From a virus: a stretch of 28,274 bases of DNA. Positions 3 to 16,105 of the stretch are shown here, in pieces. Position numbers and translations under genes: made by a program. The stretch is taken from positions 1-28,274 of the IMG/VR virus record IMGVR_UViG_3300027849_000047. One strand, written 5' to 3'. How positions within the stretch are numbered: the first letter of the stretch is position 1; each line of letters begins with the position of its first letter. The notes under the pieces were generated by a model that worked only from the letters and a program-made list of their open reading frames with translations, did not search any database and was not told where the DNA came from.

Positions 3-191
3 GTTGATCAATCAGTTTCATTAAATTTAGCTTTTCCTAAAGAAGCAGAACCTAAGTTTATTAATAAAGTACATTTAGAAGCTTATGAGCAAGGAATTAA
101 GACTCTATATTATATGAGAACTGAATCAGTATTAAGAGGAGATATAGCGGCACAAGCAACCGATCCAGATTGCCAAGCATGTGATGGATAA
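3..191 (+). CDS. nrdA: Ribonucleoside-diphosphate reductase large (alpha) subunit, C-terminal end (partial)
   Basis: Open reading frame running in from the left edge and stopping at TAA 189-191; 62 codons are visible. The end reads KTLYYMRTESVLRGD, which matches the conserved C-terminal part of class I NrdA (the Tyr-Tyr pair and the R-x-E-S stretch), followed by a tail ending in CQACDG. In the family, a C-terminal cysteine pair shuttles electrons from thioredoxin or glutaredoxin to the active site, and this Cys-x-x-Cys pair fits that role. The enzyme reduces ribonucleotides to deoxyribonucleotides; phage-encoded copies supply dNTPs for replication. Only the tail is visible, so intactness and the subclass cannot be judged. 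A terminator at 253-294 closes the transcript. Confidence 0.75.
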   Translation, partial: VDQSVSLNLAFPKEAEPKFINKVHLEAYEQGIKTLYYMRTESVLRGDIAAQATDPDCQACDG

Positions 192-715: not shown

Positions 716-1045
716 ATGAAACACATTAAAGATTTAAACGAATGGCAAGACCATTTACAAATGCAAGCTGATCAAGCAGGCATGACTAAAGAAGAATGGA
801 TTGCAGCATACGGATCTAATATTCAAGGAGTTGACGAAGCAAACACAGATGGAACTATTTCAGATGATGAGGATGATGACTTAGAGAATTTACTAATGAG
901 TGTTGAATTTTCAACTAACGAATTAATTGACTATATTGAGAGTGAATCTCAAGAAGTTGGAGGACAATTCAGAGCACCTGGATATAAAGCTCAAGCTATT
1001 AAGCTTATGAAAGAAACTTTTAAAAGAAGAAAGTTTAAAATATAG
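716..1045 (+). CDS. Hypothetical protein with acidic centre and basic C-terminus
   Basis: 109 residues, three bases after the zinc-ribbon gene and probably on the same transcript. It starts MKHIKDLNEWQDH, related to the MKHVKLFE starts seen at 548 and 15770. Residues around 45-60 are very acidic (TISDDEDDDLENL), and the C-terminus is basic (KLMKETFKRRKFKI). I do not recognise a family. The shared N-terminus may be a head-targeting signal, but no [LI]-x-E|[AS] protease site follows it closely, which weakens that idea. Confidence 0.65.
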   Translation: MKHIKDLNEWQDHLQMQADQAGMTKEEWIAAYGSNIQGVDEANTDGTISDDEDDDLENLLMSVEFSTNELIDYIESESQEVGGQFRAPGYKAQAIKLMKETFKRRKFKI

Positions 1046-1698: not shown

Positions 1699-2451
1699 AT
1701 GAAAATTACAATTAACAAAGTAGATCAAAACAGTTTCACTAGCTTTATCAACAGATTAAAGGTTATTGATACATTCGTATACTTTAAAATTAAAGACGGT
1801 GTAGTTCAAGCTTCAGCTTACTTACCACAAAGAGATGCTGTAAAGCATCACAGAGTTCCAGTTGAACATATGTTCCAAATTGCTGAGCCAATTACAACTG
1901 AAAAAGAATTAAAGATCGCTTTCTTTGATGCAACTAAATTAACAGATGCATTTAAGCAATTCGAATATGATTCTATTCAAGGTGAAATTGAATTCATCGA
2001 AAACGCAGACGATTTTGTAGCAACATCATTTAGAATTTTTAATGACGAATTAGAAATTAACCTTGCATGTTCAGAACCATCTTTAGGATATAAAGATCTT
2101 ACAGATTCTCAAATTGCAACAATTTTCAATGTTGAAGAAGCAAACTATAAGTTTGACATGGATTTATCTACATTAAATAAAGTTAAATCTTTATTCGGAT
2201 TAGATAAAGAAGAAACTTTCTCAATCGAAGCAAACGGAAAGGGTGTTAAATTAACAGGTAATACTTATAACATGTTAGTTACTCCAGATTATGACGGAAA
2301 AGCAGGTGGAAAGGTTACACTATTCAAAAAATACTTAAATTTATTAGACAAAGAAGATTATACAGCTAACGTAATGGACAATAGAGTCGTGTTAAGATCA
2401 AATGAATCTGAAACACTATTAACAATTGCAACTTGCCAAACAGCTGAATAA
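1699..2451 (+). CDS. 45: Sliding clamp, gp45-like DNA polymerase processivity factor
   Basis: 250 residues, close to T4 gp45 (228). The sequence has the alternating beta/helix character of a clamp, including GVVQASAYLPQRDAVKHHR and repeated acidic strands, but no single diagnostic motif, so the call rests on length, character and context: it is the first gene of an operon with the polymerase C-terminal half and UvsX. gp45 forms a trimeric ring that tethers the polymerase and, in T4, also activates late transcription by binding gp55 and gp33. The clamp loader genes are elsewhere (21438 and 23676), unlike the compact T4 45-44-62 order. A strong promoter at 1640-1669 drives it. Confidence 0.72.
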   Translation: MKITINKVDQNSFTSFINRLKVIDTFVYFKIKDGVVQASAYLPQRDAVKHHRVPVEHMFQIAEPITTEKELKIAFFDATKLTDAFKQFEYDSIQGEIEFIENADDFVATSFRIFNDELEINLACSEPSLGYKDLTDSQIATIFNVEEANYKFDMDLSTLNKVKSLFGLDKEETFSIEANGKGVKLTGNTYNMLVTPDYDGKAGGKVTLFKKYLNLLDKEDYTANVMDNRVVLRSNESETLLTIATCQTAE

Positions 2452-2454
2452 CTT

Positions 2455-3654
2455 ATGTCGGATATAACACAACTACTAGAGAAGCCAGAATCTGAGCTTA
2501 GTGATGCTGAAGCAAAGGACCTTATCGAACACTATTCGATGATGTCTGCGAAATACACAGCGTATGAGCAAGCAGTTAAAGTAACATTAAACTCGATTTA
2601 TGGTGCCTTTGGAAACAAATGGTTTCACTTCTTCAATTTAGATATTGCAGAATCAATTACAATACAAGGTCAAGGAGCAATCCTTTATTCTGAGAAAATA
2701 TTGAATAAGTACTTTCAAGATTTCTGGATGAAAGATGTTGCAGTCCATGAATACTTCAATATTAAGGTAGTTAATAAACTTGTAAAACCATCAGTTGTTT
2801 ATATCGATACAGATTCTTGTTATGTCCAGTTTGAAGAAATGTATGAATCTATTGAATGGCTTGGAGAAAAGCTAACAATTGATAAGTTCATTATGAGACT
2901 ATATAATTTTAGAATCAAGGACTATATTACTAAGTGTATGGCAAAGTACGCTGAAACAACGAATACAGATAATTTCTTGTATTTTGATTTAGAGACTATT
3001 GCATACTCAGGTATTTGGTTAGCCAAAAAGAAATATTTACAAAACATTGCTTGGGAAGATAAACTTGATGAAGAAGATAGATATCCAACCTTATCTAAAA
3101 TAAAAACGATAGGGTTTGATACTATTCAAAGTTCAACTCCAGCAGTTGCTCGTAAGCATTTAACTGAAGCACTTAAATTAGTATTGTCTGAAAAGCCAAC
3201 ATCTGATTTACTTAAGAAATTAGTAGAGTATTTGAAAAAATGTAAGAAGGAGTTTAAGCTGGTTGACGTTGATCAGATTGCATTTAACAAAAGAACTAAT
3301 AATATTGAGAAGTATATCGTTGATGACACTATCGAGTTCCAGATTGGTTCTAAGTGTCCTCCTAATGTTAAAGCAGCAGGATTCTATAATTTCTTAATGA
3401 ATACCAATCCTAAATACAAGAATAAGTATAAAATGATTGGTAACGGTGAGAAGTTAAAGTTATACCACTGTAAACATACAACATGTGATATGTTCGCATA
3501 TATGCCAGGAGATCATCCATATGAGATAGCTCCAGAAATTGATTATGAACTTCAATTTGAAAAGAGTGTAATTGATCCTTTAAATAGAGTATTGAAAGCA
3601 TGCAGTCTACAGACACTAAACAGAAACTTAATTTATTCAACATCATTATTTTAA
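2455..3654 (+). CDS. 43: DNA polymerase gp43, C-terminal half (split family B polymerase)
   Basis: 399 residues. Family B motif B is at 41-50 (K-x-x-x-NSIYG) and motif C at 116-121 (YIDTDS, metal-binding Asp118 and Asp120). LAKKKYL in the middle fits the KKxY motif, and the rest has the length of palm plus thumb. The C-terminus, ending STSLF, resembles the clamp-binding tail of T4/RB69 polymerases. The 3'-5' exonuclease domain and motif A (DxxSLYP) are missing, and the start lies just before motif B; upstream is the complete clamp gene, so the N-terminal half is not adjacent and nothing in the window encodes it. The piece looks intact, with no decay. It presumably pairs with a separate N-terminal subunit. 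Start ATG is 3 bases after the clamp stop. Confidence 0.9.
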   Translation: MSDITQLLEKPESELSDAEAKDLIEHYSMMSAKYTAYEQAVKVTLNSIYGAFGNKWFHFFNLDIAESITIQGQGAILYSEKILNKYFQDFWMKDVAVHEYFNIKVVNKLVKPSVVYIDTDSCYVQFEEMYESIEWLGEKLTIDKFIMRLYNFRIKDYITKCMAKYAETTNTDNFLYFDLETIAYSGIWLAKKKYLQNIAWEDKLDEEDRYPTLSKIKTIGFDTIQSSTPAVARKHLTEALKLVLSEKPTSDLLKKLVEYLKKCKKEFKLVDVDQIAFNKRTNNIEKYIVDDTIEFQIGSKCPPNVKAAGFYNFLMNTNPKYKNKYKMIGNGEKLKLYHCKHTTCDMFAYMPGDHPYEIAPEIDYELQFEKSVIDPLNRVLKACSLQTLNRNLIYSTSLF

Positions 3655-15769: not shown

Positions 15770-16105
15770 ATGAAACATGTAAAACTATTTGAACAATTCC
15801 ATAGCCTTGATGAAGCTACTAAAGTAACTCCAGAATCTAAGGTAATTATAGATGACTATAGTACAGACAATGGTACTGAAATTAAAAGTACTGAAATTGT
15901 GGGAGCTATTGTAAGTTCTGAAACTGAAAAAGAATTTGAAGATTATTTCTACAAAACGTATGGCAATGGAGAATTCACAACTAATGATATTTCAACTTTA
16001 AAGAAATACTATTTAGAATACGTGGAAGAAATAGTTGCTGCTGAAACAGAAGCTGAAGAAGCTGAAAAAGAAGAAGAAGAAGAAGATCCATTAGCTGGAA
16101 TCTAA
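15770..16105 (+). CDS. 67: Prohead core protein, gp67-like
   Basis: 111 residues, very acidic at the C-terminus (EETEAEEAEKEEEEEDP around 90-107). Its position between portal and protease is that of T4 genes 67 and 68, and T4 gp67 is a small, highly acidic core protein, so the call rests on position and composition. The start MKHVKLFEQFHSLDE|ATKV has a capsid-targeting-like beginning followed by LDE|A (13-16), which fits the T4 prohead-protease consensus [LI]-x-E before a small residue. The mature protein would then lose 15 residues inside the head. There is no good promoter in the 27-base gap, so it is probably read through from gp20. Confidence 0.6.
   Translation: MKHVKLFEQFHSLDEATKVTPESKVIIDDYSTDNGTEIKSTEIVGAIVSSETEKEFEDYFYKTYGNGEFTTNDISTLKKYYLEYVEEIVAAETEAEEAEKEEEEEDPLAGI

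What the first reader, a model, noticed from the sequence alone, without database searches (positions are those of the whole stretch)
2455..3654. DNA polymerase split between motifs A and B, halves not adjacent
The gene encodes motif B, motif C and the thumb with a normal C-terminal end, but no exonuclease domain and no motif A. The gene directly upstream is the complete clamp, and no N-terminal half exists elsewhere in the 28 kb. Split gene 43 is known from some Aeromonas T4-like phages, where the two parts are close together. Here the two would assemble in trans, and the C-terminal half is locked into the clamp operon. The break falls in the fingers region between the two palm motifs.
Basis: partly seen in the sequence, partly recalled or inferred. 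Interest (0 to 1): 0.8.

Follow-up and report, generated by a model that had tools for sequence, protein, structure and literature searches.

The report
Replicative phage polymerase made in halves
This phage makes its main DNA-copying enzyme as two separate proteins from genes several kilobases apart, an old and lineage-wide arrangement already visible in public databases; the missing front half lies just beyond the edge of the sequenced fragment.

Summary
Window 2455-3654 is the C-terminal half of a T4-type gp43 (motif B, motif C, thumb; no exonuclease, no motif A), 3 nt downstream of the putative clamp gene. The N-terminal half is absent only because the 28-kb contig starts inside nrdA. In 64 of 64 relatives whose contigs reach far enough, a 465-468 aa N-terminal half (exonuclease, motif A, fingers helix N) lies 3.6-7.6 kb upstream on the same strand, with nrdB, nrdA, 0-6 small genes and the clamp between. 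No long relative has an intact gp43. Both halves are under strong purifying selection, so a two-subunit polymerase assembled in trans is by far the best reading.

It is not unique. Sphingomonas phage PAU, Chryseobacterium phage MA9V-1, Prevotella Lak phages and 460-735-kb phages share the break, with the halves 2-620 kb apart and often on opposite strands. PHROGs already holds a matching pair of half-families (phrog_2062, phrog_1918). The Aeromonas split falls at the same place but is independent. No intein or homing endonuclease marks the break.

By-catch: in huge-phage relatives, motif B of this gene is often interrupted by 36-48 nt hairpin inserts resembling the T4 gene 60 translational bypass.

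The parts
2455..3654 (+). gp43 C-terminal half: fingers helix P, motif B, palm with motif C, thumb
   Evidence: Pfam DNA_pol_B 149-380/453; phrog_262 487-843/856 and phrog_1918 end to end; aligned to RB69 gp43 from residue 554
2455..2577 (+). Charged helical leader of the C-half before motif B; the break maps to about T4 residues 500-517, the tip of the fingers
   Evidence: Junction alignment with intact gp43s
2578..2616 (+). Motif B (KVTLNSIYGAFGN)
   Evidence: Sequence; alignments
2800..2817 (+). Motif C (YIDTDS)
   Evidence: Sequence; invariant D-T-D-S across 27 C-halves
1699..2451 (+). Putative sliding clamp (gp45), directly upstream of the C-half
   Evidence: Position and size; weak profile match to gp45 (hhalign E 7.5e-4, probability 25%); upstream of the C-half in all relatives that reach it
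3..191 (+). C-terminal end of nrdA; shows that the contig starts inside the segment that separates the two halves
   Evidence: 95% identity to NrdA residues 548-609 of L009
4021..5130 (+). uvsX recombinase, downstream neighbour conserved in relatives
   Evidence: Pfam RecA; synteny

Best explanation
The gene encodes the C-terminal subunit of a two-subunit, T4-type (family B) replicative DNA polymerase. The N-terminal subunit (N-terminal domain, 3'-5' exonuclease, motif A, first fingers helix) is encoded separately, upstream of nrdB-nrdA, and is cut off here by the contig edge. The break lies in the loop at the tip of the two antiparallel fingers helices, so each subunit keeps one helix. Inferred: the two subunits pair through the fingers helices and the palm and together form the active site (motif A from N, motifs B and C from C), and clamp and C-half are translationally coupled. 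Shown by sequence: both halves always occur together, no intact copy exists in long relatives, and all catalytic motifs are conserved across the pair under purifying selection.
For: N-half in 64/64 relatives with enough upstream sequence, including L004, whose C-half is 99% identical. One N-half, one C-half and no intact gp43 in each of 24 long relatives. Order N-nrdB-nrdA-(0-6 ORFs)-clamp-C conserved. Break between the fingers helices, with motifs A, B and C present across the pair. dN/dS 0.02-0.07 for both halves, never above the clamp in seven pairs. N and C trees broadly congruent. N-half folds confidently and matches RB69 gp43. Same pair in PAU, MA9V-1, Lak and LR7565xx phages. Precedent: Aeromonas phage 25 43A and 43B co-purify and have polymerase activity (PMC2988022).
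Against: The N-half of this particular phage was not seen (contig edge). No co-fold or biochemistry; the C-half alone gave a poor model. The clamp call rests partly on position.
Confidence: 0.92

Rival explanations
1. The C-half is a decaying or accessory duplicate, and an intact gp43 or an unrelated replicase does the replication.
For: The half gene alone lacks motif A, which is needed for catalysis.
Against: No intact gp43 in 24 long relatives; dN/dS 0.02-0.07; catalytic motifs invariant; N-half always present.
Confidence: 0.03
2. The two halves are joined into one polypeptide after translation (split intein) or at RNA level (trans-splicing).
For: Inteins do occur elsewhere in this gene family: motif C of LR756500 and Lak-A1 C-halves. 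A split PolB with an intein is reported in Pseudomonas phage MIJ3 (PMC6892783).
Against: Neither half has an intein domain at the break; both halves end in ordinary polymerase sequence next to the break. The 20-200+ kb distances and opposite strands in huge phages make RNA trans-splicing demanding.
Confidence: 0.03
3. Clamp and C-half are expressed as a readthrough fusion protein.
For: In the window and most relatives the clamp and C-half are in the same frame, separated by one TAA and 3 nt.
Against: Spacing varies from 0 to 8 nt and all three phases occur among relatives, so a fusion is not conserved. Termination-reinitiation coupling explains the short gap.
Confidence: 0.02

Closest known systems
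Sphingomonas phage PAU gp105 / gp110 and Chryseobacterium phage MA9V-1 ORF135 / ORF138
   Same: Same break in the fingers, N-half upstream of C-half on the same strand a few kb apart, a clamp-sized ORF directly upstream of the C-half; same PHROG pair phrog_2062 / phrog_1918
   Different: Other genes between the halves (no nrdBA in the slot; a dUTPase in PAU); distant sequences on long branches
Prevotella Lak phages and huge phages LR756500-LR756504
   Same: Same pair of half genes with the same break
   Different: Except in LR756500 the halves are over 100 kb apart and on opposite strands; inteins at motif C in LR756500 and Lak-A1; hairpin inserts at motif B in many LR756502-like relatives
Aeromonas phages 44RR / 25, split gene 43A / 43B
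   Same: Break at the same loop (about T4 residue 510); two chains co-purify and are active in phage 25 (PMC2988022)
   Different: Independent origin (p-AU 1.5e-53 against common origin); halves adjacent, separated by a short untranslated stretch or a seg-type endonuclease gene
Rhodothermus phage RM378 ORF024 / ORF092
   Same: Family B polymerase in two distant genes (ORF024 exonuclease; ORF092 annotated as polymerase, about 57 kb apart)
   Different: ORF024 ends after the exonuclease region, so the break lies before the palm rather than in the fingers; ORF092 is known here from its annotation only

Membership tests
T4 gp43 family B DNA polymerase | Polymerase motifs B and C in the window gene | tested here: met
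   Sequence and alignments
T4 gp43 family B DNA polymerase | Exonuclease domain and motif A somewhere in the same genome | tested here: inconclusive
   Absent from the truncated window; present as a separate N-half in 64/64 relatives with enough sequence, Pfam exo1 and DNA_pol_B in L004
T4 gp43 family B DNA polymerase | Single polypeptide | tested here: not met
   Two genes in all relatives
Split gp43 pair phrog_2062 (N) / phrog_1918 (C) | End-to-end match of each half | tested here: met
   Window C-half 9-374/382 of phrog_1918; L004 N-half 4-496/502 of phrog_2062
Aeromonas-type split gp43 | Break between the fingers helices | tested here: met
   Both at about T4 residues 500-517
Aeromonas-type split gp43 | Common descent of the split | tested here: not met
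   AU test p 1.5e-53
Split-intein polymerase | Intein fragments flanking the break | tested here: not met
   No intein domain in either half
Two-subunit active polymerase | Complex formation and polymerase activity | not testable with these tools
   Needs co-expression or multimer prediction

The most novel reading that the evidence does not exclude
In a large, mostly uncultured lineage of T4-like jumbo and huge phages, the replicative polymerase has long been an obligate two-gene heterodimer whose genes drift apart in the genome. In many huge members the C-subunit gene is also interrupted inside catalytic motif B by 36-48 nt hairpin elements that ribosomes skip by gene 60-type bypassing. That would be a recurrent, site-focused family of bypass elements in an essential enzyme.
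Probability: 0.45. Interest if true: 0.85.

Novelty: new variant of a known kind. Interest (0 to 1): 0.55.

Why it matters
A single-chain replicative polymerase is usually assumed for T4-like phages. Here the two-chain form is fixed across a large lineage, and the break has arisen at least twice at the same loop (this clade and Aeromonas), which marks the fingers tip as a tolerated break point. Annotation pipelines call each half 'DNA polymerase', so gene counts and polymerase trees of jumbo phages can be wrong. In huge phages the halves are independently placed, so two distant genes must be expressed together. The related motif-B hairpin inserts, if bypassed by ribosomes, would add a new natural system for studying ribosome hopping, of which few are known (PMC5009743).

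Tried and rejected
Readthrough fusion of clamp and C-half: rejected because the phase varies. Split intein at the break: no intein domain. Homing endonuclease as present-day separator: the HNH family seen between the halves lies only near or in nrdA. Intact duplicate: none in 24 long relatives. One common origin with the Aeromonas split: rejected. Intact gp43 of Flavobacterium phage MaF61 in the same clade: placement unresolved, since a single clade of splits without it is not rejected (p-AU 0.18), so an intact sister or a re-fusion both remain possible. An IMG/VR scan with the MaF61 polymerase found no relatives. A genome-contig scan with the N-half found only one distant match in a Glaciecola MAG, so no host link. 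AlphaFold of the C-half alone gave a low-confidence model that was not used. Rfam found no intron in eight hairpin-bearing loci at gathering threshold.

Full report
OBSERVATION. ORF 2455-3654 encodes 399 aa. It matches the C-terminal part of family B polymerases (Pfam DNA_pol_B 149-380/453; phrog_262 gp43 487-843/856) and is end-to-end homologous to phrog_1918, a family of just this length. Its best solved relatives by sequence are RB69 gp43 structures, aligned from residue 554 onward. Motifs B and C are intact; there is no exonuclease domain and no motif A. No other DNA_pol_B match exists in the record. The ORF upstream (1699-2451) is the putative clamp. Its sequence similarity to gp45 is weak (hhalign E 7.5e-4, probability 25%), so I rely on position and size as well.

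WHY THE N-HALF IS MISSING. The window is a 28,274-base IMG/VR record. Its first ORF (3-191) is the last 62 residues of NrdA. Of 80 IMG/VR relatives fetched with the C-half, 64 contain an N-half and the other 16 end within 4.3 kb upstream of the C-half; the distance from N-half end to C-half start is 3,591-7,635 nt. The order is N-half, nrdB, nrdA, 0-6 variable small ORFs, clamp, C-half, uvsX. Relative L004 (C-half 99% identical) shows the same. In 24 longer relatives (60-234 kb) each has one N-half and one C-half and no intact gp43.

ANATOMY OF THE BREAK. Aligned to T4 and other intact gp43s, the N-half ends and the C-half starts at about T4 residues 500-517. That is the tip of the two antiparallel fingers helices (domain assignment from established RB69 structures). 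The N-half carries the exonuclease, motif A (DFASLYPS) and the first fingers helix with QRKxYK; the C-half starts with a charged leader and the second helix with motif B. Both halves are under purifying selection (dN/dS 0.02-0.07 in seven pairs, never above the clamp and comparable to UvsX). AlphaFold gives the N-half alone a confident fold (pLDDT 80, pTM 0.77), with a terminal 34-residue helix and low confidence around residues 351-383; its best PDB matches are RB69 gp43. The C-half alone is poorly predicted (pLDDT 52); with a shallow alignment this proves nothing.

HOW IT WORKS. Best reading: a heterodimeric polymerase. Shown: conserved co-occurrence, complementary catalytic motifs, selection, absence of an intact copy. 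Inferred: pairing through fingers and palm, and clamp/C-half translational coupling (0-8 nt gap). Clamp-stop readthrough is unlikely because all three phases occur. A split intein is unlikely because neither half has intein domains. For Aeromonas phage 25, separately encoded 43A and 43B co-purify and have polymerase activity (PMC2988022), so assembly in trans is feasible.

HOW OLD AND HOW WIDESPREAD. The same pair occurs in Sphingomonas phage PAU (gp105/gp110), Chryseobacterium phage MA9V-1 (ORF135/138), Prevotella Lak-A1 and LR756500, LR756501, LR756502 and LR756504. Separation ranges from about 2 kb to 620 kb in record coordinates, often with opposite strands. A maximum-likelihood tree puts all of these, plus the intact gp43 of Flavobacterium phage MaF61, in one clade (100/100), while Aeromonas 44RR sits with T4. 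One clade of splits excluding MaF61 is not rejected (p-AU 0.18); uniting them with Aeromonas is (p-AU 1.5e-53). So the split arose at least twice at the same loop, and in the window's clade probably once and long ago. MaF61 is either an intact sister or a re-fusion; long branches prevent a decision. PHROGs v4 already contains a matching pair, phrog_2062 (N) and phrog_1918 (C). I found no paper in the searchable library that describes this clade-wide split: the jumbo-phage overview PMC7824862 discusses a split Pol III, not a split PolB, and the MA9V-1 paper lists both ORFs without comment. Subscription journals are largely outside that library, so absence there is weak evidence of novelty.

BY-CATCH: HAIRPIN INSERTS IN MOTIF B. 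In huge-phage C-half genes related to LR756502, 25 of 41 distinct motif-B regions carry one extra 36-48 nt segment. The 20 that I folded each form a GC-rich hairpin of about 9 bp or more, and 22 of 25 have a stop codon within two codons of the insert start (my count on the sequences). They occur at six positions: Ala|Leu, Leu|Lys, Val|Leu, Gly|Ser, Ser|Tyr and Tyr|Gly. In 19 of 25, covering five of the six positions, the codon before the insert and the last codon of the insert are synonymous, as with take-off and landing codons in T4 gene 60; the six Tyr|Gly inserts do not show this. The stop immediately follows the take-off codon in only three, unlike gene 60. Insert lengths fall in all three phases, and the downstream reading frame stays intact. 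In nine contigs (78-465 kb) the CCCCC...GGGGG hairpin occurs once per contig, except for one extra copy in G033; its sequences are those of the motif-B inserts. Identical elements come from separate metagenomes (L266, L267, L268), so an assembly error is unlikely. Known bypass cases are T4 gene 60, probably Streptomyces phage Hau3 terminase, and mitochondrial byps (PMC5009743). Translational bypassing is a hypothesis; RNA excision is not excluded. The window's own gene has no such insert.

VERDICT. New variant of a known kind; interest 0.55. The motif-B hairpin inserts deserve a session of their own.

Noticed in passing
Huge-phage relatives: L251, L252, L253, L255, L258, L259, L262, L265, L266, L269, L273-L276, L279, L285, L287, L295, L321, L324, L342, L347, L350, L351, L355: 36-48 nt inserts with a GC hairpin, usually with an early stop codon, interrupt motif B of the gp43 C-half gene at six positions; flanking codons are synonymous in 19 of 25, as in the T4 gene 60 translational bypass.
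   Followed up: partly
Window 716-1045 and 15770-16105; many small ORFs between nrdA and clamp in L004, L031, L070, L075, L079; L134 3850: Otherwise unrelated small ORFs share a leader like MKHIKLFEQFVNEA, reminiscent of a T4-type capsid targeting sequence on internal head proteins; function not tested.
   Followed up: no
nrdB-nrdA slot between the polymerase halves in L003-L082: The same slot holds two very different nrdB-nrdA versions (about 80-100% versus 28-40% identity to L009), suggesting replacement in place by homologues from elsewhere.
   Followed up: no
L134 7416-10813 (LR756500); L162 and L158 (Lak-A1): Intein-splicing domains interrupt the C-half exactly at motif C (DTDS) in two distant members of the clade.
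   Followed up: partly
L067, L068, L071, L074 (nrdA); the same loci plus L082 (uvsX): nrdA is interrupted by an intein-like insert with an HNH ORF, and similarity to uvsX stops after residue 222, so uvsX may be interrupted too.
   Followed up: no
L356 534-1274 (G009) and L357 reverse strand (G001): A separate ORF of about 240-247 aa with only a family B-type exonuclease domain lies about 75-80 kb from the polymerase genes in many relatives; possibly a DexA-like exonuclease.
   Followed up: no
L138 19944-22928 (Flavobacterium phage MaF61): Intact 994-aa gp43 that groups with the split clade and shares its long insert before motif C; either an intact sister lineage or a re-fusion.
   Followed up: partly
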